Positions 7,237 through 15,444 of a stretch of DNA of 18,476 nucleotides are shown one piece after another (within the stretch, counting starts at the first letter, position 1; the number at the start of each line of letters is the position of its first letter). The notes below the pieces were generated by a model. It made no database searches, was not told the DNA's origin, and saw only the letters and a list, made by a program, of their open reading frames with translations. The position numbers and the translations under genes are program-made. The stretch is from an uncultured Lachnospiraceae bacterium (GTDB lineage Bacteria > Bacillota_A > Clostridia > Lachnospirales > Lachnospiraceae): assembly GCA_947302185.1 (NCBI GenBank), contig CAMYVI010000016.1:1-18476 (forward strand), given 5' to 3'.

Positions 7237-8724
7237 TTACACCTTTTCTTCCTTCAGCGCAATAACAAGGGATGCCATCTCAGCAAACATAATAAAGATG
7301 AACGGGAACGCAGCCGCAAGCGAAATCGTCTGAAGCGGTTTGAGTCCGCCTGCCAGCATCATGCCGATTGCCATGATCGACTGAATAACGCCCCAGATGA
7401 CCATCTTCTTCTTCGGCGGGTTCTGCTCACCATCAGATGTAAGCATTGACAAGACGAATGTACCCGAGTTCGCTGACGTGATGAAGAATGTGTTCAACAA
7501 AACAATAGCTACTATAGAGAAAATCTTCGTCAGCGGGTAATACTGTAATACCGTAAAGAGTCCTGTCTCCGGTGCTGCAGCGATCGCCGCAAGCTGCTCG
7601 TGTGTGAGAACACCCGTGTTAGCCAGGTGAAGTCCGAGGCATCCGAAAATCGAGAACCATACGATAGATGTAAGACCCGGGACCAGAGCAACGCCCATGA
7701 TGAACTCACGGATCGTTCTGCCCTTGGAGATTCGGGCGATGAAGACGCCGACAAACGGAGCCCACGCGATGAACCATGCCCAGTAGAAGATTCTCCAGTC
7801 AAAAGTCCAGCTGTTGTCACCGTATCCGTTTACAAGCAGTGAATCCTTGATGAAATCCTGCAGGTAGGATCCGATGCCTCCGATGAAGCCGTTGAGGATC
7901 TCCATCTTCGGTCCCAGTACAAAGCCCGCGATCATAAGACCGACGAACAGATACAGGTTGATGTCAGAGATAACTGCAATTCCCTTTTCGATACCGGCCG
8001 CTGCCGTCGAAATGTAGATGACAGAGATGATCAGGATAATGATGATCTGAATCATCAGGTTGGAAGGAATTCCCAGGACCATGTTAAGACCTGAGTTGAT
8101 CTGCATGACACCGAGTCCGAGGGATGTGACGACACCCGCAACTGTTGCAAATACAGCGAGAACGTCAACTATTGTGCCAAGCATACCTTTTGCCCTGTCT
8201 CCGATCAGCGGAACCAGTGTGGTGCTGATCATGGCGTTCTGTTTCTTTCGGAATCCAAAGTAGGCAAGTCCTAATCCCATTATAGCATAGTTAGCCCACG
8301 GAGATACGCCCCAGTGCATAAAAGCGGCTTTTAGCGCGAAATTCGCGGCTTCCGGAGTTTCCGGAGCAATGCCTGCAGCCGGTGAAACGTAGAAGGAAAT
8401 AGGTTCCGCTACGCCCCAGAATACCAGGCCGACACCCATGCCGCAGCCAAACAGCATGGCGAACCATGTCAAAGTGCTGTACTCAGGCTTCTCACCGTCC
8501 TCGCCCAGTGTGATATTTCCCCACTTGCTGGCAGCGATAAAAACCGCGAACACAACAAAGGCTATCATAGCAACAAGGTACAGCCACCCGAATTTCTGCG
8601 TGAAGAACGCGAACATGGCGTTGGCCGCAACGGTAAAAGCAGCGTTGAAGCCAACCGCCCAGACCGCAATGATCACGCAAATAATTAGTGAAACAATAAA
8701 AATTGTATTAAATTCTTTTTTCAT
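7237..8724 (-). CDS. BCCT-family transporter, probably Na+-coupled glycine betaine uptake
   Basis: This 495-residue membrane protein has about 12 hydrophobic segments and BCCT hallmarks. These are GMGVG at 95-99 (the GxGxG form typical of betaine carriers such as BetP, where choline carriers have Asp at the last position), HWGVSPWANY with W138, W143 and Y146 at the spacing of the BetP aromatic box, and the FYWAWFIAWAPFVGVFIAR block near 313-331. F413, T416 and S417 sit like the BetP Na2-site residues, pointing to sodium coupling. The C-terminus is very short (ends ALKEEKV), without the long tail linked to osmosensing, so a nutritional role is more likely than osmoprotection. GGAGAT precedes the ATG. 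It lies between grdH and trxB in the operon, so betaine for the reductase is the obvious cargo. OpuD/BetT naming is avoided because specificity is inferred. Confidence 0.9.
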   Translation of the reverse strand: MKKEFNTIFIVSLIICVIIAVWAVGFNAAFTVAANAMFAFFTQKFGWLYLVAMIAFVVFAVFIAASKWGNITLGEDGEKPEYSTLTWFAMLFGCGMGVGLVFWGVAEPISFYVSPAAGIAPETPEAANFALKAAFMHWGVSPWANYAIMGLGLAYFGFRKKQNAMISTTLVPLIGDRAKGMLGTIVDVLAVFATVAGVVTSLGLGVMQINSGLNMVLGIPSNLMIQIIIILIISVIYISTAAAGIEKGIAVISDINLYLFVGLMIAGFVLGPKMEILNGFIGGIGSYLQDFIKDSLLVNGYGDNSWTFDWRIFYWAWFIAWAPFVGVFIARISKGRTIREFIMGVALVPGLTSIVWFSIFGCLGLHLANTGVLTHEQLAAIAAAPETGLFTVLQYYPLTKIFSIVAIVLLNTFFITSANSGTFVLSMLTSDGEQNPPKKKMVIWGVIQSIMAIGMMLAGGLKPLQTISLAAAFPFIFIMFAEMASLVIALKEEKV

Positions 8725-8835: not shown

Positions 8836-8851
8836 AATCAGATCTCTGATT
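8836..8851 (-). terminator. Weak terminator-like hairpin at the grdH stop
   Basis: AATCAG and CTGATT form a 6-bp stem around a 4-nt loop, overlapping the grdH stop codon and followed on the minus strand by TTTGTG. The stem is AT-rich, so only partial termination would be expected, perhaps making more GrdI/GrdH mRNA than downstream mRNA. Confidence 0.3.
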
Positions 8852-10154
8852 ATACCGGGAATACTGTCTGCTCCTCAACATCAGTAGCAAGTGCCTCCAG
8901 AGCAACTCTGACTCTGTGATAACGAAGCTTCCACTGATCTTCCTTGGATGTAGCAGGATCTCCCAACGGATACGGGATAGAGATTGTCGGAACGATTCGG
9001 TTCGCGCCAACCGTCTTGGAAACAGGAACGATATTGCACATATGAACGATCGGAATACCAGCACGCTCAATTTCTTTGACCATCGTTGCACCGCAACGTG
9101 TACAGGTCCCTCACGTACTTACCATTATGCATGCGTCGACATTGTCGGCCTGCAGTAATGGCAGAATTTCCTTAGCCATTCTCGAAGCTTCCTTCTCTGT
9201 CGTTCCTGTACCGACAGTTGCGTAGAAGTACTGATGAAGGCTTCCGAATACGCCTTCCTTCTCCATGGCGCGAAGAACGTCGATCGGCATGATGACGTTC
9301 GGGTCAGCATTTGCAGCGGCAGGATCGAATCCGGCGTGGATCGTCTTGAAGACGCCGCTCTCGAGTCTTTCCATACCTGTGATATCGTACTTGCCCCAGC
9401 GTGTAGCGGATGCGGACTGGATACGGTCCGGATTGTCCACCGGGACGATACCGCCTGTTGTGAGGAGGGCTACCTTTGCCTGCTTGAGGTCCTTGACCGG
9501 AGCTGCGATCGGGACGCGGTCAAGCTTCGGAACGATCAGCTCGGAGACGAACTCTTCGCCGGCGATACGTGCATGAAGCATTCTCATGAAACGTGTTGTG
9601 GCATCCTCTTCGATAAATACCTGATGACGACGTCCTGTCGGGAAGTAGCCTTCGTCAGCTGCCGGGCCGACTTCTTCGCCGGCAAGCATCTTGTTGGCGA
9701 CCTTGACGACTGCCGCGAGGTCTTTTCTCATCTTGGAAGCGATGTTGCCGCCCTTCATGATGATAATATCCTTGCGGAACATTTCCATACCCGGATTCTC
9801 CTGGTTCATGGATGTGATGACCGGAACACCGAACTTGTCTTTGACTGCCTTGCAGATCGTGCCGCACGCAACGCCGTAACGACCAGCGTTGAATGCCGGA
9901 CCTGCAATAAAGATATCGAATTCAAGATTTTCAAGGAATCCAAGAATCTGTGCTACAGCATCCTCGGTGTTGGATCCCATATAGTTGTCGCCGCAGATGA
10001 TTGTGTGTGTGACATCGCAATCCTTCAGCTGCGCATTGTACGCCATGGCCGGGCCGATCAATCCCTCATGGATGGACGGGCCTACGCCTGCAGTATCTTC
10101 GCCGCCGAGCTGGCCGAAGAACTGATTGACGTAAATAATCGCCTTTTTGCTCAT
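8850..10154 (-). CDS. grdH: Betaine reductase component B selenoprotein GrdH (GrdB/GrdF/GrdH family), in-frame UGA read as Sec348
   Basis: This is the selenoprotein subunit of the substrate-binding component B. It attacks the substrate and transfers the carboxymethyl group to GrdA. The frame from the ATG at 10154 (AAGGAGAA about 6 nt upstream) is open to a UGA at 9111-9113 and continues in frame to TAA at 8850, giving 434 residues. The junction reads MVST-U-GTCTRCGATMVKEI, the conserved UxxCxxC site (U348, C351, C354). FNAGRYGVACGTICKAV and TTGGIVPVDNP also fit the family. GrdB, GrdF and GrdH are very similar. GrdH (betaine) is chosen because the partner looks like GrdI and a betaine-type BCCT carrier follows. 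It starts 15 nt after grdI ends. Confidence 0.9.
9078..9108 (-). promoter_or_regulatory. SECIS-like hairpin after the grdH UGA
   Basis: On the minus strand a perfect 6-bp stem, CGTTGC/GCAACG (9093-9098 with 9084-9089), closes a three-base loop GGU (9090-9092). An outer 4-bp stem GACC/GGTC (9105-9108 with 9078-9081) adds a second tier. Exactly 18 nt lie between the UGA and the GGU. From memory this equals the UGA-to-GGU distance of the E. coli fdhF SECIS. The GGU loop is the SelB contact in that model. Confidence 0.75.
9111..9113 (-). other. Recoded UGA (Sec348) of grdH
   Basis: Homology continues without a break across this UGA: 347 residues of component B precede it and 86 follow, starting GTCTRCGATMVKEIERAG. 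Sec at this point of the UxxCxxC motif is the rule in the GrdB/F/H family. Confidence 0.96.
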
Positions 10155-10169
10155 GCTATTTCTCCTTTA

Positions 10170-11495
10170 TCAGAAATCTTTCATTGTCTTGTGTGACCAG
10201 CCTACAGTCATATCGCCGCAGAACAGGCCATTGTCTTCCATGATGATGGAGCCGTCGGGTCTTACAGAAGGTCCGAGGATCTCGTCGCCTTCCCAACCGC
10301 CGGAGTTACCGTCTCTGCCGAGAGCTTCAAGCTCGCCGAGGACGACCTTCATCGGAGGAAGTTCAATAAGTTCCGATACGTTGCCGGTAGAAACCATTGC
10401 ATGGATCTTCTCATCCAGAGTAACGAGCGGCTGAGAAGCGCCGTCACGGCCTGTGCACTCATTTGCAACACCGACGACCTTGATGCCTGCAGTCTCGAGG
10501 GCAGCGATAGCACCGACGTAGTCAGCATCCGGGTTGCCGTAGCCTTCTTCTGTGACCAGAGCGAAATCTGCGCCAAGTTCTGTAGCTGTCTGTACGATGA
10601 ACTGAATTGCGCGCTCTTTCTGATCCATAGCGACGTTCAGGTTAGCCATGATAACGCCAAGGAAGTTGTAGTCTTTTCCGTCCTCGTCCATAAGCGCACG
10701 GAGAATCGGATAGTTCTGGAAGTCATATGTCGACCACTTGGATGAGCACGGCATGAAGGATCCGGATACAAGAGCGCCGTCAAGGATTTCCTGCGGGCTC
10801 ATAAGTGTCGGGAGATACTTGTTCATATCCCAGCCGTAAACAAGGTCATTGTAGCCGAGAGCTTCCATCTGGGACTGCGGCTGAAGAACAGCAACGAGTG
10901 CCGGAAGCGCATTGACTTCTGCAGATCTCTTTGTGATCGGAGTTGTCTCATAGACATCCGTGTCTTCCGGAGTAAGCTCCTTTACGCACTGTCCGATGAA
11001 CTCAGCGAGCTTGTGACCTGCACGTCTCAGCGCGTCGTTCTTCTTCTGCTGCTCATAGCGCTCGAATTCCTCGTTCGTGTCAGCTACCAGTACGATATTG
11101 TTGAGGCCGCCGAAGTATGTGTGCTTCTGGCCCGGGCCGCTCATATCGATGAGGCCGTCCTGGAATCCGCCCCAGTGTCTTCCTACTACGAGGACACTGC
11201 AGTTCTTGAGTGCGTGGAGAACGCCGTTGCCGGACTGGCGCAGCGGACTTGTGTAGCCCGGGAAAAGTCCCTTGCCGTCAAGCCTTACACGCGGTTCGAT
11301 TGCTTCCTTGACCGGGCAAAGGCGTACTTCGTCGCCGGGCTTAACAATATAAAGCTCAGCCTCTGTGATGCGGTCGTCTTCTCTTACCATCGCAAGTGCT
11401 TCTTCTTTGTTGATGGTCAGAACACCGTCTTTGAAGGATAATTCATCTCCGAAAGCGATTTCATTTACATAAAAATTACCAATCTCGAGTTTCAA
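10170..11495 (-). CDS. grdI: Betaine reductase component B, subunit GrdI (GrdE/GrdG/GrdI family)
   Basis: This is the second subunit of substrate-specific component B, 441 residues from a TTG start at 11495 (read MKLEIGNFYVNEIAFGDEL). The TTG is chosen because AAGGAGGAGG ends 8 nt before it and family proteins start MKLE-G-F. The in-frame ATG 27 codons upstream has no ribosome site. The region around residues 244-263 reads SGSFMPCSSKWSTYDFQNYP. In glycine and sarcosine proteins (GrdE/GrdG) this place holds an Asn-Cys pair where the precursor is cleaved to form a pyruvoyl group; here it is Ser246-Phe247. A quaternary amine such as betaine cannot form a Schiff base, so an uncleaved subunit fits GrdI. 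C-terminal GRDGASQPLVTLDEK and WEGDEILGPSV also recall GrdI. It is the first gene of the operon. Confidence 0.85.
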   Translation of the reverse strand: MKLEIGNFYVNEIAFGDELSFKDGVLTINKEEALAMVREDDRITEAELYIVKPGDEVRLCPVKEAIEPRVRLDGKGLFPGYTSPLRQSGNGVLHALKNCSVLVVGRHWGGFQDGLIDMSGPGQKHTYFGGLNNIVLVADTNEEFERYEQQKKNDALRRAGHKLAEFIGQCVKELTPEDTDVYETTPITKRSAEVNALPALVAVLQPQSQMEALGYNDLVYGWDMNKYLPTLMSPQEILDGALVSGSFMPCSSKWSTYDFQNYPILRALMDEDGKDYNFLGVIMANLNVAMDQKERAIQFIVQTATELGADFALVTEEGYGNPDADYVGAIAALETAGIKVVGVANECTGRDGASQPLVTLDEKIHAMVSTGNVSELIELPPMKVVLGELEALGRDGNSGGWEGDEILGPSVRPDGSIIMEDNGLFCGDMTVGWSHKTMKDF

Positions 11496-11512
11496 GAAAT
11501 CATCCTCCTCCT

Positions 11513-11552
11513 TTCCATGTGCAAATTGTCTCTTTGTTGCGCGAACATGGAA
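11513..11552 (-). other. Leader hairpin next to the grdI ribosome binding site
   Basis: TTCCATG and CATGGAA (11546-11552 with 11513-11519) form a 7-bp stem, with an inner GCAA/TTGC stem (11537-11540 with 11521-11524). The 3' arm directly abuts the AAGGAGGAGG ribosome site (11503-11512), so folding could affect access of ribosomes to the TTG start. Confidence 0.45.
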
Positions 11553-11588
11553 CTTTTGACTAGTACATATCCACATATTCGCATAAAA

Positions 11589-11602
11589 ATAAGCGCGCTT
11601 TC
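11589..11602. promoter_or_regulatory. Candidate operator, grd promoter downstream site
   Basis: ATAAGCGCGCTTTC carries the full 10-bp palindromic core AAGCGCGCTT (11591-11600), with one flank degraded. Its centre lies 52 bp from the upstream site, about five helical turns, and about 11 nt past the predicted transcription start. This is where a repressor would block initiation or escape. Confidence 0.6.
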
Positions 11603-11612
11603 TTATAGTAAT

Positions 11613-11641
11613 AGTTTATAAGAACATGATAAGTAAGTCAA
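11613..11641 (-). promoter_or_regulatory. Promoter of the betaine reductase operon
   Basis: On the minus strand TTGACT (11636-11641, 5 of 6 consensus) is 17 nt from TAAACT (11613-11618). An alternative -10 TATAAA (11615-11620) leaves 15 nt. A start near 11606 would give a leader of about 110 nt before the grdI TTG. The -35 overlaps the end of the 16-bp palindrome at 11640-11655, and the second palindrome falls about 10 nt downstream of the start, so the promoter is bracketed by candidate operators. Confidence 0.65.
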
Positions 11642-11655
11642 TAAGCGCGCTTATT
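11640..11655. promoter_or_regulatory. Candidate operator, perfect 16-bp palindrome (grd promoter, upstream site)
   Basis: AATAAGCGCGCTTATT is a perfect palindrome touching the -35 box of the grdI promoter. Its core AAGCGCGCTT recurs at 11591-11600 and 14262-14271, and with one change at 14286-14295. Its size and symmetry suit a dimeric TetR-family protein, and a tetR-like gene lies 1.6 kb away. The link to that protein is inference. Confidence 0.65.
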
Positions 11656-11708
11656 TATATCAAAATACAATTAATAGACTATCTCTATAAATCGAATTTT
11701 GAGTACGG

Positions 11709-12254
11709 TTATAGTTTTTCAGTGCCGATGATCCACTCTTTTTTCAGCATCCAGACAGCCCCCTGCTGCCAGGTCTCATCCGGCAACGGTTCTGTAAAGA
11801 GAGCTTTCCAGCTGTCTCTGATCTGCTTCTTTACCAGGGGGTAAAAAGGCTTTGCGAAGACATCGGTCGTGTCGCCGGCCCCCTGCCGTCTCATATCCGA
11901 AAGTATCTTCTCCCGCTCCGCAGGATTTCCCAGGGGTTTAAGCGACAGGATCTCCTGCCAGTTCCTGAGGTCAAAAAGTACCATCTGATCCTCCGGGACT
12001 TCCAGCTCATATAAGAGGGCTCCCTCATGGCAGAACACGCGGCTTACGTCCCGGAAGACCCATATCGGGCTTTCCGCCTCGGCGGGTCTTGGCACGCGTT
12101 TTTCCATCTCCCGGGTCATGAACGAGTAGGCCTCAAGGAAGATCCATGCAGTCTCCCTGTATTTTTTTCTCAGATATTCCCGCTTTACATAGGAGACCCC
12201 GCAAAGATCCAATGTCTCCTGCACGACCGGCATCTGTACTGTCCACATTCTCAT
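11709..12254 (-). CDS. DUF3841-like protein, second of a tandem pair
   Basis: This is an uncharacterised protein of 181 residues starting MRMWTVQMPVVQETLDLCGV. This kind of N-terminus (WT-Q, then a leucine-rich helix and a short G-V-Y/S segment) is what I associate with DUF3841. It has no signal peptide or membrane segment, so it is probably cytosolic. It is clearly a diverged paralogue of the gene just upstream: shared features include the WT-Q start, K-EY--KK-, PIW, a LE-EVP segment, FYPL-K---SW-A-F and a terminal K-EW. The ATG at 12254 has GGAGGA 6 nt upstream and follows the previous stop by only 2 nt, so translation may be coupled. The longer frame to 12299 is rejected for lack of a ribosome site. 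Function is unknown. Confidence 0.75.
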   Translation of the reverse strand: MRMWTVQMPVVQETLDLCGVSYVKREYLRKKYRETAWIFLEAYSFMTREMEKRVPRPAEAESPIWVFRDVSRVFCHEGALLYELEVPEDQMVLFDLRNWQEILSLKPLGNPAEREKILSDMRRQGAGDTTDVFAKPFYPLVKKQIRDSWKALFTEPLPDETWQQGAVWMLKKEWIIGTEKL

Positions 12255-12256
12255 TT

Positions 12257-12862
12257 TTATTCCTCCGTATTTAAATAGTGACGGATTTTTCTGACCCACT
12301 CCTTACGGATCTCCCAGGCAGTCGCCACGAGACCCATCTCCGTATTTCCCGGCTTCAGAGTAAACGCGCGGCTCCAGCTCTGCTGCACCTCCCGCTTTAA
12401 AAGAGGATAGAAATTCCCTTTATTTGTAAGAAGCAGCTCATCATCGCTGCCGATACCGTAACGCCGGAGTTCGTTCGTATGACGGACACGGTCCGCCTCA
12501 TCAAGAGGCACATAAAAATAATTGACAATGTAGCCCCACGCGTCATAATTGCATAAAAGATACCTGTCAGCCGGGATCTCAACTTCCAGAATGACGGTGC
12601 CTTCCACCGGCTGCAGCATATTGTCCTCCGACATGCTGAGCCAGATCGGGTATTCTCCTGCAGTCTCTATATATTTCGAAGCTTCTTTCGTGTACCAGCG
12701 ATACAGTCTGAGATAAAACTCCGAGATCGTATCATTTTTCTTTTCTATATACTCTTTTTTTACCCGGTAGACGCCCGTCTTCTCCAGCTCCTCTTCAATC
12801 GCCGCGGCCTGCCTTGTCCAAAAAATCCGCGTTCCCGGTTCCGAAAATCCCATGCCGTTCAT
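12257..12862 (-). CDS. DUF3841-like protein, first of a tandem pair
   Basis: This is an uncharacterised 201-residue protein starting MNGMGFSEPGTRIFWTRQAA. Like its neighbour it shows the WT-Q beginning, GVYRVKKEYIEKK, a central PIWLS, ILEVEIPADRYLL, then FYPLLKREVQQSWSRAF and EIRKEWVRK at the end. This is the layout I associate with DUF3841. The start at 12862 has AAGGG about 8 nt upstream; the next ATG (residue 4) is possible. No enzyme motif or membrane segment is visible. The ribosome site lies only 24 bp from the left target duplication of the inserted element, so the insertion sits between this gene and whatever promoter lies further upstream. The pair separates the grd operon from the tetR-like gene. 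Confidence 0.75.
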   Translation of the reverse strand: MNGMGFSEPGTRIFWTRQAAAIEEELEKTGVYRVKKEYIEKKNDTISEFYLRLYRWYTKEASKYIETAGEYPIWLSMSEDNMLQPVEGTVILEVEIPADRYLLCNYDAWGYIVNYFYVPLDEADRVRHTNELRRYGIGSDDELLLTNKGNFYPLLKREVQQSWSRAFTLKPGNTEMGLVATAWEIRKEWVRKIRHYLNTEE

Positions 12863-12886
12863 AGTGTTTTCCCTTTCCGATTCAGT

Positions 12887-12894
12887 GTCCGATT
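12887..12894. repeat. Left 8-bp target site duplication of the MITE
   Basis: GTCCGATT directly abuts the left GTAA tip and is identical to 13093-13100 on the other side. Confidence 0.85.
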
Positions 12895-13092
12895 GTAATA
12901 GTTCAGACAGGCTGTTCGAGGTCTGAGATACGACGCAAACATCATCTTCATCGAAAAGCGCTGGTCACTACCCTGCGAGCCAAAAAGGCTAAAGCCTTTT
13001 GGTCTCTCGGTCGGACCAGCAATGCTTTTCTCACGAAGATGGATGCTTTGCGCCGTTAACGAACTATCATAACAGCCTGTCTGAACTGTTAC
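12895..13092. mobile_element. 198-bp foldback MITE with 22-bp terminal inverted repeats (IS66-like tips)
   Basis: The ends (12895-12916 and 13071-13092) are inverted repeats matching at 21 of 22 positions, with tips GTAA...TTAC. The element is flanked on both sides by a perfect 8-bp direct repeat GTCCGATT (12887-12894 and 13093-13100), a target duplication. The interior is itself an imperfect palindrome: GCTGGTC/GACCAGC at 12960-12966 and 13014-13020, and a central hairpin near 12977-13006. No transposase is encoded, so it is non-autonomous. GTAA tips and 8-bp duplications are the pattern I know from the IS66 family; that assignment is from memory. Confidence 0.85.
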
Positions 13093-13100
13093 GTCCGATT
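13093..13100. repeat. Right 8-bp target site duplication of the MITE
   Basis: GTCCGATT directly follows the right TTAC tip and is identical to 12887-12894. Perfect identity suggests a fairly recent insertion. Confidence 0.85.
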
Positions 13101-13286
13101 TAAAGATAAGTGCCTTAATTTTTTTCTCACTATTGCTTATCTCTATAAATCTATAGTAAGATAGGATATATAAAAATTTCACTGCATATTTGCCATTTAT
13201 TACATCTTTGTCATACTCTCTTTGATATCGCAGCCGTGCCGGGACGCAGCTTCCGTCCTCTTAGCCAACGATACAGGTAATGCCAT
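13101..13286. other. AT-rich control region between the MITE and tetR-like gene
   Basis: No ORF is supported here. It probably holds divergent promoters. On the plus strand TTGCCA (13189-13194) and CATACT at 16-nt spacing could serve the regulator. A 14-bp sequence TATCTCTATAAATC (13138-13151) is identical to 11680-11693, upstream of the grd promoter. A degenerate operator-like ATAAG-TGC-CTTA occurs at 13106-13117. No clear copy of the AAGCGCGCTT palindrome is present, so autoregulation through that motif is not supported. Confidence 0.4.
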
Positions 13287-13991
13287 ATGCTGAATAAAAA
13301 GAACCAGGATTTATTCCTGCGGAGAAAACGCGCCTTCGTGGATGCCGCATCGACTCTGATCGCTTCTCAGCCGTTTTCCTCCATCTCGATCCGCAAGATC
13401 GCGGAGACCGCAGGATTCCACAATTCAACAATTTATTCCTATTTTCAGGACTCCGACTGGCTGATTGCACTCGCTTCCGTGCGTTTTCTTCAGCCCTACA
13501 GTGATGCCCTGGTCGAAATAAGCCGACAGGACCTTAGCCCTTACGAATACTTTTATGCTATCTGGAACTGCTTCTGCCGCTACGCATTTTCCAGTCCGGC
13601 ACTTTACTACAACTTCTTCTTCGGCAAATATAAATATCAGCTCACAGAACTGCTGGATGAATACTATACTCTATTCCCGGACATTAAGAACGATCATTCT
13701 CCGCTCATTAACGCCATGTTCCAGGGGAACACCATGTATGACAGATGCCTGAGTATTCTGACCCCCCTCGTCAATGAGCCCGGAGCCCGCCTGACAGACG
13801 AGACCCTTGAGATGGCCAATTTCATCATCGTGAGCACGCTTGAGGAGTATCTGTCCAGCCAGATCCGCGAGGCCGGAACTCCCTCCGACGAATCTTATGC
13901 GGACATAACCATGGCCGGCGGAACTCTCGAAGATTACAGAAAACCGACAGCGGATTTCCTGAAAATGCTGCACTTTATCGTTGACAGCTGA
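13287..13991 (+). CDS. TetR/AcrR-family transcriptional regulator
   Basis: This 234-residue protein is the only plus-strand gene. The N-terminal helix-turn-helix is clear: residues 33-55 read ISIRKIAETAGFHNSTIYSYF, the TetR signature, preceded by the usual first helix (RRKRAFVDAASTLIASQPF). The C-terminal part is all-helical and matches no ligand class I can name. The ribosome site is weak (CAGGTAA about 9 nt upstream). It sits between the betaine reductase operon and the selenium cluster, both of which carry copies of an AAGCGCGCTT palindrome of operator type. It is therefore the best local candidate to bind those sites. The ligand could be betaine, a reductase product or a selenium signal; none is shown. 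It converges with selC across a shared terminator. Confidence 0.9.
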   Translation: MLNKKNQDLFLRRKRAFVDAASTLIASQPFSSISIRKIAETAGFHNSTIYSYFQDSDWLIALASVRFLQPYSDALVEISRQDLSPYEYFYAIWNCFCRYAFSSPALYYNFFFGKYKYQLTELLDEYYTLFPDIKNDHSPLINAMFQGNTMYDRCLSILTPLVNEPGARLTDETLEMANFIIVSTLEEYLSSQIREAGTPSDESYADITMAGGTLEDYRKPTADFLKMLHFIVDS

Positions 13992-14029
13992 TAACCTCAA
14001 AGCGGCTTTCCCCAATTATCGATATAACC

Positions 14030-14061
14030 AAAAAGAACTGCCATATGCGGCAGTTCTTTTT
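14030..14061. terminator. Bidirectional intrinsic terminator between tetR-like gene and selC
   Basis: GAACTGCC (14035-14042) and GGCAGTTC (14049-14056) form a perfect 8-bp stem with a 6-nt loop, flanked by an A5 run on one side and a T5 run on the other. It can end transcripts from both directions. It lies 39 nt after the regulator stop and 27 nt after the selC CCA end. Confidence 0.88.
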
Positions 14062-14087
14062 AACGTGCAAGTCTGCACAGATCATTC

Positions 14088-14184
14088 TGGCGAGAGCGTG
14101 TGGGAATCGAACCCACCCAGGACGTACACACGCCCAACACTGGTTTTGAAGACCAGGAGGCACACCAGTTACCTATCCACTCCC
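14088..14184 (-). tRNA. selC: tRNA-Sec (anticodon UCA)
   Basis: This 97-nt tRNA has all the marks of tRNA-Sec. It has an acceptor stem of 7-8 pairs (GGGAGTGG with ACGCTCTC, last pair G-A), a D stem AGGTA/TGCCT, and an anticodon stem CTGGT/ACCAG with loop CTTCAAA (anticodon UCA at 14147-14149). It also has a long variable arm closed by 6 pairs (GGGCGT/ACGTCC), a T arm GTGGG-TTCGATT-CCCAC, a G discriminator and an encoded CCA. It delivers selenocysteine to the UGA codons of grdA, grdH and selD. It has its own strong promoter and ends at an intrinsic terminator. Confidence 0.96.
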
Positions 14185-14223
14185 TTATTAACATTTTAAG
14201 TTCCGGAGAACTTCCGATATGAT

Positions 14224-14251
14224 ATTATCACGGCCGGAATTCATATGTCAA
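14224..14251 (-). promoter_or_regulatory. selC promoter
   Basis: On the minus strand a perfect -35 TTGACA (14246-14251) is 16 nt from GATAAT (14224-14229); the overlapping TAATAT gives 18 nt. A start near 14217 leaves a leader of about 33 nt before the mature tRNA. The leader contains a 6-bp inverted repeat (AAGTTC/GAACTT, 14198-14213). Confidence 0.75.
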
Positions 14252-14259
14252 CACAATCA

Positions 14260-14273
14260 ATAAGCGCGCTTAT
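14260..14273. promoter_or_regulatory. Candidate operator, selC proximal site
   Basis: ATAAGCGCGCTTAT is a perfect 14-bp palindrome identical to the centre of the grd promoter site at 11640-11655. It is centred about 49 bp upstream of the predicted selC start, outside the -35 box. This position suits activation, or blocking read-through from the upstream gene, better than simple occlusion. Confidence 0.65.
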
Positions 14274-14283
14274 AAAAAATCAC

Positions 14284-14297
14284 ATAAGCACGCTTGA
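14284..14297. promoter_or_regulatory. Candidate operator, selC distal degenerate site
   Basis: ATAAGCACGCTTGA keeps 9 of 10 positions of the AAGCGCGCTT core. Its centre is 24 bp from the proximal site, just over two helical turns, and only 4 bp separate it from the desulfurase stop codon. Confidence 0.45.
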
Positions 14298-14301
14298 ATC
14301 A

Positions 14302-15444
14302 CTAATCCTCTCCCCCGGCAAGTTCCCGGAGCGCATCAAGGGCAGTATCAACTTCATCCGCTGTGTTGAAGCTCGAGAAGCTGAATCGCACCGCTCCCTG
14401 ACTGACTGTTCCCAGCGCCCTGTGCATCATCGGCGCACAGTGGCCGCCAGGCCTTGTCGCGATCTCATACCCGAAGGCGAGCTCATCGCTGACCTCACCG
14501 GAATCATAATCTCTCAGGTTGAGCGTAACGATCGGGCACCTTTCCTCCGTATCGAAATCGCCGTAGATACGCACGCCGGGAATTTCTTTCGCGCCGTTAT
14601 AGAAACGGCGCATGAGCTCACGCTCCGCACTCCTTATGTCGTCGATCCCGGTCTCCATGATATACTCTACCGCCGCGTGAAGACCGGCAATTCCGTGTCC
14701 GTTCAGTGTGCCTGCTTCCAGTGCTGTAGGCATTTCCCTGGGATGCTCCCTGCTGTAGGTCTGCACGCCGCTGCCTCCGGAAAGGAGCGGACGGATCTCC
14801 ACCCCCTCGCGCACATAAAGACCGCCTGTCCCCTGAGGACCCAGAAGTCCTTTGTGACCGGTAAAGCACAGTACGTCTATATTCATCTCCTGAACGTCGA
14901 TCGGAATGACCCCCGCCGTTTGAGACGCGTCCACAATAAAGATGATGCCGGCCTTACGGGCTGCCGCGCCGATGCGGGCAATATCGACCATATTGCCCGT
15001 CAGATTCGATGCGTGCGTACAGACGATTCCCCTTGTGGAGCTGTCCACATATTTAAGGATGTCCTCCGGTCGGATCGCCCCCTTTTCATCGCACTCGGCA
15101 TACGTTACCCGCACGCCCTTTTTTTCAAGCTCATAGAGGGGACGAAGCACTGAGTTGTGCTCCAGCACCGTGGAGATAACATGGTCGCCCGGGGCAAAAA
15201 GACCCTTGATCGCGATATTCAGGCTCTCTGTGGAGTTGGCCGTGAACGCGATCCGCGTCGCTTTCTCCGCGTTGAAAAAATCCGCGAGCAGCTTTCGCGT
15301 GTCATAAATCGTTCTTGCCGCTCCGAGCGAAGCGCCGTGAGTTCCCCGCCCGGAGTTTCCCATATGCTGCATGGCCTGCGTTACCGCCTCTATGACACAG
15401 CGGGGTTTGACCATAGTAGTCGCGGCATTGTCAAAATAAATCAT
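14302..15444 (-). CDS. Class V aminotransferase: cysteine desulfurase / selenocysteine-lyase-like enzyme
   Basis: This 380-residue PLP enzyme should mobilise sulfur or selenium from cysteine or selenocysteine. MIYFDNAATT opens the protein. The PLP lysine is K198 in FTGHKGLLGPQGTGG, and the catalytic cysteine is C336 in RPGGHCAPMMH. The pattern fits the group of cysteine desulfurases found next to selD in Firmicutes, not IscS (no Fe-S scaffold nearby). The start ATG overlaps the stop of the SirA/TusA-like gene by 4 bp (ATGA), so the two are translationally coupled and probably work together, the enzyme passing persulfide or perselenide to the carrier cysteine. A role in supplying selenide to SelD is inferred from the neighbourhood. 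Confidence 0.9.
   Translation of the reverse strand: MIYFDNAATTMVKPRCVIEAVTQAMQHMGNSGRGTHGASLGAARTIYDTRKLLADFFNAEKATRIAFTANSTESLNIAIKGLFAPGDHVISTVLEHNSVLRPLYELEKKGVRVTYAECDEKGAIRPEDILKYVDSSTRGIVCTHASNLTGNMVDIARIGAAARKAGIIFIVDASQTAGVIPIDVQEMNIDVLCFTGHKGLLGPQGTGGLYVREGVEIRPLLSGGSGVQTYSREHPREMPTALEAGTLNGHGIAGLHAAVEYIMETGIDDIRSAERELMRRFYNGAKEIPGVRIYGDFDTEERCPIVTLNLRDYDSGEVSDELAFGYEIATRPGGHCAPMMHRALGTVSQGAVRFSFSSFNTADEVDTALDALRELAGGED

What the first reader, a model, noticed from the sequence alone, without database searches (positions are those of the whole stretch)
11589..14297. One palindrome (AAGCGCGCTT core) shared by the betaine reductase promoter and the selC promoter, beside a TetR-type gene
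Four copies occur in the window, all in intergenic control regions: a 16-bp perfect copy and a core copy bracketing the grdI promoter, and a 14-bp perfect copy plus a degenerate copy upstream of the selC promoter. None was noticed in coding sequence. The only regulator present lies between the two loci. This suggests a dedicated regulon that adjusts tRNA-Sec supply to betaine reductase expression, and the two promoters differ in geometry (bracketing versus upstream).
Basis: partly seen in the sequence, partly recalled or inferred. Interest (0 to 1): 0.82.

Follow-up and report, generated by a model that had tools for sequence, protein, structure and literature searches.

The report
Betaine-reductase repressor operators also at selC
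A short DNA palindrome in this gut bacterium is very probably the binding site of a local TetR-type repressor of the betaine-reducing enzyme, and in this lineage the same site also stands in front of the gene for the selenocysteine tRNA that the enzyme needs.

Summary
In detail: three exact AAGCGCGCTT copies (0.03 expected) and one degenerate copy, all intergenic. The regulator reading is well supported. Of 40 fetched loci of TetR relatives, 26 also carry grdI; 23 of these have the exact core before grdI, one has 1-mismatch copies, two have TAATCGCGATTA at both positions. In relatives the first operator usually sits between -35 and -10 and the second near +19, as for a repressor. In 397 family genomes, 13 of 14 with grdI also have the TetR. 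In distant Clostridia operator and recognition helix both differ. The selC part is real but lineage-specific: of 35 selC loci scanned (1.5 kb each side) in TetR-holding genomes, only sister genome G001 has the operator. In 20 of 35 selC loci and 17 of 28 grdI regions another element occurs, TATAGA-N5-TCTATA, probably the box of the selenium LysR regulator; the window has it at grdI, not at selC. Best reading: a betaine-reductase repressor whose operator has come to stand before selC in one lineage. Binding, ligand and any effect on selC are untested. I found no description of the operator, the box or the selC link in the papers searched.

The parts
11640..11655 (.). Operator O1 of grdI, AATAAGCGCGCTTATT, overlapping the -35 by 2 bp; predicted centre about -41
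   Evidence: 28.3 bits
11588..11601 (.). Operator O2 of grdI, AATAAGCGCGCTTT, predicted centre about +11; 52 bp from O1
   Evidence: 20.7 bits
11613..11641 (-). grdI promoter TTGACT-17-TAAACT
   Evidence: 11585-11660 identical (76 of 76) in G001
11673..11689 (.). Dyad TATAGA-N5-TCTATT (1 mismatch, read on the minus strand), candidate LysR_Se box upstream of the grdI promoter
14260..14273 (.). Operator at selC, ATAAGCGCGCTTAT, predicted centre about -50
   Evidence: 26.8 bits; identical in G001
14286..14295 (.). Degenerate copy AAGCACGCTT, predicted centre about -74
   Evidence: 10.1 bits here, 4.5 bits in G001
14222..14251 (-). selC promoter TTGACA with -10 GATAAT (spacer 16) or TAATAT (spacer 18)
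14088..14184 (-). selC, tRNA-Sec (anticodon TCA)
13287..13991 (+). TetR-type regulator, 234 aa, the proposed DNA-binding protein
   Evidence: model pLDDT 89.5
10167..11576 (-). grdI, betaine reductase component B subunit; ORF as listed, but homologues start MKLEIGNFYV-like, which fits a TTG start near 11495
8850..10154 (-). grdH, betaine reductase selenoprotein B (in-frame UGA)
   Evidence: NF040795, 788.3 bits, cut-off 775
7237..8724 (-). BCCT-family transporter downstream of grdH
   Evidence: TIGR00842 480.6, cut-off 407.55; NF047988 609.6 against cut-off 650
11709..12862 (-). Two DUF3841 genes between TetR and grdI
14302..15444 (-). Cysteine desulfurase / selenocysteine lyase-like gene (csd) ending just before the selC operators
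   Evidence: TIGR01977 437.4, cut-off 377; SclA model NF040779 374.1 against 525, not met

Best explanation
The palindrome is the operator of the TetR-type protein encoded at 13287-13991. A dimer binds TAAGCGCGCTTA at two places around the grdI promoter and blocks RNA polymerase; an inducer, most likely glycine betaine or a related compound (inferred), releases it so that betaine reductase and its BCCT transporter are made. In the lineage of the window and G001 the same operator also lies just upstream of the selC promoter, so tRNA-Sec transcription should respond to the same signal, probably by interference with polymerase at the -35 side (inferred). grdI also carries a TATAGA-N5-TCTATA box, probably for the selenium LysR regulator, so it may read both substrate and selenium; 20 of 35 selC loci in TetR-holding relatives have that box, the window's selC does not. 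Shown: the sites, their specificity, conservation and geometry, and their joint occurrence and change with the TetR. Inferred: binding, ligand, repression, and any effect on selC.
For: Window: 3 exact copies, 0.03 expected; a matrix from other genomes (seeded by the core) picks the four sites first to fourth. TetR loci: 40 found; 26 carry a grdI of at least 70% identity in the same locus, of which 23 have an exact core before grdI, L081 has two 1-mismatch copies, and L070 and L074 have TAATCGCGATTA at both positions. Genome-wide 12-mer TAAGCGCGCTTA: 43 copies in 29 of 38 TetR genomes (reversed control 2), sorted by their coordinates as 30 grdI-promoter or TetR-adjacent, 4 trxA/trxB-grdA, 2 before TauE-like permeases, 1 between csd and a grdI-like (36%) gene, 6 other. 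In 145 relatives of G001, 15 have the 12-mer; of the other 41 of its genus none. Co-occurrence: 14 of 397 family genomes have grdI, 13 of these have the TetR (21 of 397), Fisher p 3.5e-18; class sample 8 of 10 grdI genomes with TetR (13 of 366), p 7.6e-12. G455, with grdI but no TetR, has no operator. Geometry: O1 centred at -22 in 20 of 32 grdI- or TetR-linked regions, O2 at +18 to +20 in 21 of 32, and -22 in the four off-locus trx promoters. Joint change: HNST helix with TAAGCGCGCTTA; NSAT helix with TAATC(A/G)(T/C)GATTA-like sites in distant Clostridia. selC operator identical in G001.
Against: No binding or expression data. The selC operator is found in only two sister genomes; 34 of 35 selC loci scanned lack it, and 3 further tRNA-Sec hits over cut-off, in G170 (two) and G146 (one), were not scanned. 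At selC the sites lie at about -50 and -74, outside the core promoter, so repression there is not obvious; the outer site decays in G001. In the window the grdI operators sit at -41 and +11, not the usual -22 and +19. The window's TetR promoter has no operator (best -4.4 bits). L070 and L074 have the variant operator but keep HNST, and no single helix residue explains them (A at residue 40 is shared with L064, which has the usual operator). G252 has a weak TetR homologue (29%) and grdI but no such operator; its helix differs. 9 of 38 TetR genomes have no 12-mer, among them G150 and G158. Genomes other than G001 and G080 hold 22 copies against 7 of the control, 5 of them in G138; these were not examined.
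Confidence: 0.75

Rival explanations
1. The TetR binds the selC sites but selC transcription hardly responds; the operator is a neutral or recent acquisition and selC is in effect constitutive.
For: Operator at selC only in the window and G001, not in the other 34 of 35 selC loci scanned; sites upstream of a near-consensus promoter.
Against: 26.8-bit site only 8 bp from the -35; identical in both sister genomes, but the whole region is 93-96% identical, so this is weak evidence.
Confidence: 0.25
2. At selC the TetR acts as an activator, since its sites lie at -50 and -74 like those of an activator.
For: Position upstream of the -35; spacing unlike that at grdI.
Against: At many grdI and trx promoters of relatives the operator sits in the -35/-10 spacer, the place of a repressor; TetR-type activators are uncommon (recalled).
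Confidence: 0.12
3. The two copies before selC are an RNA hairpin (terminator of csd), not DNA sites.
For: They pair into a 13-bp stem; -21.2 kcal/mol, z -3.5 in the window.
Against: No T run after the stem (tail ATTGATTGTG); in G001 one base change breaks a stem pair while making the outer core a perfect 10-bp DNA palindrome (though a poorer operator, 4.5 bits), and the fold drops to -14.0, z -1.1 (the two 71-nt stretches folded are not in the same register). The same palindrome stands alone or with other spacing at other promoters.
Confidence: 0.07
4. Another regulator, not the neighbouring TetR, binds the palindrome.
For: No binding data; in G147 and G155 TetR and operators lie on different contigs; unexamined copies in genomes without a close TetR.
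Against: Co-occurrence with grdI and the joint change of operator and recognition helix.
Confidence: 0.06

Closest known systems
TetR-family local repressors with palindromic operators (BetI of choline-betaine genes is the nearest by name; its biology is recalled)
   Same: TetR_N domain, adjacent gene, palindromic operator overlapping the promoter in relatives, quaternary-amine metabolism.
   Different: Not BetI: TIGR03384 31.7 bits against a cut-off of 201.3, matching only residues 13-102. Target is a reductive, selenium-dependent pathway and, in one lineage, a tRNA gene.
LysR_Se / HrsM, selenium-associated LysR regulator (Lin et al. 2015, PMC5322559; passages read)
   Same: Proposed there as regulator of Sec biosynthesis genes; here the dyad TATAGA-N5-TCTATA lies in promoters of clusters that encode it.
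   Different: 'binding site' and 'palindrom' do not occur in that main text and the passages shown give no DNA site (supplements not seen). The dyad and its extension to betaine reductase are from this work.

Membership tests
TetR/AcrR family regulator | TetR_N DNA-binding domain over gathering score | tested here: met
   PF00440 29.1 bits, cut-off 24
TetR/AcrR family regulator | All-helical TetR fold | tested here: met
   AlphaFold2 model pLDDT 89.5, 11 helices; best PDB matches are TetR-family regulators such as RamR, E 5.7e-5, with whole-length TM only about 0.4-0.55
TetR/AcrR family regulator | Palindromic operator in its own neighbourhood | tested here: met
   in the window not at its own promoter
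TetR/AcrR family regulator | Binding to operator and release by ligand | not testable with these tools
   needs gel shift or footprint
BetI | Equivalog score | tested here: not met
   TIGR03384 31.7 of 201.3; NF001978 27.5 of 118
LysR box (proposed for LysR_Se) | Dyad containing T-N11-A, upstream of the promoter | tested here: met
   TATAGA-N5-TCTATA; at up to 1 mismatch spacer 5 in 17 of 28 grdI regions and 20 of 35 selC regions, other spacers at most 2 and 4; roughly 55-90 bp before the predicted grdI start by arithmetic. T-N11-A as LysR signature is recalled
LysR box (proposed for LysR_Se) | Present with the LysR gene | tested here: inconclusive
   NF040786 over cut-off in 36 of 39 genomes; dyad within 1.5 kb of selC in 18 of 23 with LysR of at least 380 bits, 3 of 11 below, Fisher p 0.0065, threshold chosen after seeing the data; L172, with the dyad but no LysR hit, left out
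LysR box (proposed for LysR_Se) | Binding by LysR_Se | not testable with these tools
   needs gel shift
Betaine reductase | GrdH family score, with in-frame UGA | tested here: met
   NF040795 788.3, cut-off 775

The most novel reading that the evidence does not exclude
A substrate-specific repressor controls the gene for the selenocysteine tRNA itself: in this lineage selC carries the betaine-reductase operator instead of the selenium (LysR_Se) box seen at 20 of 35 selC loci of relatives, so the supply of the tRNA for the 21st amino acid follows one catabolic substrate. Placements of the same operator beside selD (L072) and before csd-selC (L125) would make this a repeated route.
Probability: 0.45. 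Interest if true: 0.78.

Novelty: new variant of a known kind. Interest (0 to 1): 0.64.

Why it matters
Betaine reductase converts glycine betaine to acetylphosphate and trimethylamine (PMC12155760, passages read), and I found no description of its transcriptional control in the searches made. An operator with clear geometry, a candidate regulator and a second, selenium-linked box give direct tests of how bacteria match tRNA-Sec supply to selenoprotein demand. The operator also makes betaine-reductase regulons findable by sequence alone.

Tried and rejected
Mismatch search of the 14-mer at 3 mismatches was mostly noise (86 forward against 72 control). Hairpin reading of the selC pair: considered and set low. 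Fold search gave generic TetR-family matches and no ligand clue. The C249 copy in G001 (L001) and the copies in L116, L117, L118 and L124 lie in ORFs and were taken as chance. L123 (before a proton pyrophosphatase gene) and L086 (before a PrsW-like gene) are left open. In 145 relatives of G001, TetR matches above 40% identity were found only in G001, G047 and G080; weaker ones in 52 more. Closer TetR homologues at 57-76% identity (P0002-P0012) have no DNA I could reach here, so whether they share the selC operator is unknown. The 12-mer copies in relatives without a close TetR were not examined. I first noted (notebook) that A at residue 40 goes with the variant operator of L070 and L074; L064 breaks this, so I dropped it. 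DUF3841: 0 papers hold the name. Papers: listings, of which several were capped (20 of 53, 25 of 42, 25 of 143, 15 of 202 shown); PMC5322559, PMC9312934 and PMC12155760 seen as passages, no whole text and no supplements. The statement that something was not found rests in a library of open-licence papers.
Full report
What is there. The window carries, on the minus strand, selD, yedE, yedF, csd and selC, then a plus-strand TetR-type gene, two DUF3841 genes on the minus strand, and grdI, grdH, a BCCT transporter, trxB, trxA, grdA and grdC/D (the names selD, yedE, yedF, trxA/B and grdA/C/D come from my reading of the ORFs, not from a family scan). The palindrome AAGCGCGCTT occurs exactly at 11591, 11643 and 14262, with one mismatch at 14286. 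Three exact copies against 0.03 expected; at two mismatches there is no excess (12 against 10.6).

Specificity. In the nearest held genome G001 (64% complete) the 10-mer is found 4 times, three at this locus and one in an ORF, and the 14-mer only twice, both here. In 38 genomes that hold a relative of the TetR, the 12-mer TAAGCGCGCTTA occurs 43 times, in 29 of 38 genomes; the reversed control pattern occurs twice (sum). Placed by their coordinates, 30 lie in grdI promoters or next to the TetR, 4 before trxA or trxB of the grdA cluster (G147, G155, G163, G171), 2 before TauE-like permeases (G176, G179), 1 between csd and a grdI-like gene (G182), and 6 elsewhere, 4 of those in ORFs. Among 145 relatives of G001, 15 have the 12-mer, none of the other 41 of its genus. 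Against this: without G001 and G080, the other 143 hold 22 copies against 7 of the control, 5 in G138 alone; I did not look at these.

The regulator. 40 TetR loci were fetched. 26 of 40 also carry grdI at 70% identity or more; 23 of 26 have the exact core before it, L081 has two 1-mismatch copies, L070 and L074 have TAATCGCGATTA at both places. The other 14 loci carry no close grdI; 6 of them have an exact core, one (L050) inside an ORF. In a sample of 397 family genomes grdI is in 14, the TetR (E up to 1e-20) in 21, both in 13 (p 3.5e-18). Of the 14 grdI upstream regions 11 have a canonical or near site (G378 only AAGCATGCTT, 14 bits) and G047 the TAATCGCGATTA variant; G455 (no TetR) and G252 (29% TetR) have none. 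In 366 class genomes 8 of 10 with grdI have the TetR (E up to 1e-15, 13 genomes; p 7.6e-12). In the 7 of these 8 other than G001 the TetR is only 24-34% identical, its recognition helix reads NSAT instead of HNST, and the grdI upstream regions carry TAATCATGATTA-like palindromes: clear in L280, L281, L285 and L287, degenerate in L283, L284 and L286; none in L282 and L211, whose genomes gave no TetR. In L285 and L287, and as degenerate copies in L283, they come in pairs 36 bp apart. Operator and helix thus differ together between the two groups, which ties this TetR to this palindrome; but this is few independent events, and L070 and L074 keep HNST with the variant operator.

Geometry. Taking the start as 6 bp past the -10, O1 is centred at -22, inside a 17-bp spacer, in 20 of 32 grdI- or TetR-linked regions and in the four off-locus trx promoters (L114, L120-L122); O2 lies at +18 to +20 in 21 of 32. 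L054 and L083, on the trxB side, have a single site at +18. This is repressor geometry. In the window and G001 the pair is at -41 and +11, and the stretch 11585-11660 is identical in the two (76 of 76). At selC the sites are at about -50 and -74.

selC. tRNA-Sec was found over cut-off in 35 of 39 TetR-holding genomes. I scanned 1.5 kb either side of the best locus in each of the 35; only G001 has the operator (26.8 bits, 82 bp from the selC 5' end). L172 could be read for only 20 bp upstream, and three further hits over cut-off (two in G170, one in G146) were not scanned. Other placements near Sec genes: L072, between the TetR and selD; L125, between a grdI-like gene and csd, with selC 1.6 kb on. 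So the selC operator is not chance, but it is a feature of one lineage as far as I can see.

A second element. In the grdI regions a dyad TATAGA-N5-TCTATA occurs at up to 1 mismatch in 17 of 28, at most 2 with any other spacer from 0 to 12; base shuffles of the regions gave 0.12 on average. It is mostly upstream of the promoter, in some downstream. The same dyad lies between 700 bp upstream and about 350 bp downstream of the selC 5' end in 20 of 35, at most 4 for other spacers, and before csd, selD operons and prdC in many of the clusters fetched. Genome-wide the exact dyad is only about twice the control (75 against 39 in 39 genomes), so single copies mean little. These clusters encode the selenium-associated LysR regulator NF040786 (412 bits in L232, cut-off 250), present over cut-off in 36 of 39 genomes, G001 included, next to an ORF that I read as selB. 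The dyad contains the T-N11-A of LysR boxes (recalled). In the window it stands before grdI (11673-11689; the two base changes between window and G001 lie in its N5 spacer), and no copy at up to 2 mismatches is near selC, the nearest being at 13131.

Mechanism. Most likely the TetR represses grdI by blocking polymerase and is released by betaine or a related compound; the LysR_Se may add selenium status. In this lineage selC has lost, or never had, the selenium box and has the TetR operator. The effect on selC is inferred.

Known or new. LysR_Se was proposed in 2015; the passages read give no DNA site. I found no paper describing a TetR regulator of betaine reductase or a transcription factor for bacterial selC in the listings; the library holds open-licence papers only and several listings were capped.

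Noticed in passing
window 11673-11689; L232-L243, L246, L247: Dyad TATAGA-N5-TCTATA shared by grdI, selC, csd, selD and prdC promoters in many Lachnospiraceae: candidate DNA box of the selenium LysR regulator.
   Followed up: partly
window 11709-12862: Pair of DUF3841 genes between TetR and grdI; similar pairs sit in or beside the betaine reductase or TetR locus in nine other loci (L045, L051, L052, L061, L062, L067, L074, L077, L078). Function unknown, 0 papers found.
   Followed up: no
L119:8007, L119:9272, L097:1501: Operators before TauE/SafE-like permease genes in two genomes; possible further regulon member.
   Followed up: partly
L123:8319-8336: Operator-like palindrome between an activase-like ORF beside a csd-like gene and a Se/S carrier gene (PF11823), and a proton pyrophosphatase gene.
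   Followed up: no
L057:9924, L060:9929, L062:3109, L065:9936: One-sided variant AATCGCGCTT 57-69 bp before the TetR match: possible autoregulation in these four Oscillospiraceae loci, not in the window.
   Followed up: no
L136 (G138) and L126 (G098): Five and three copies of TAAGCGCGCTTA in two genomes of the same order in which one search listed no match to the window's TetR; unexplained.
   Followed up: no
window 10167-11576: grdI start is probably a TTG near 11495 rather than the upstream ATG, by comparison with relatives.
   Followed up: no
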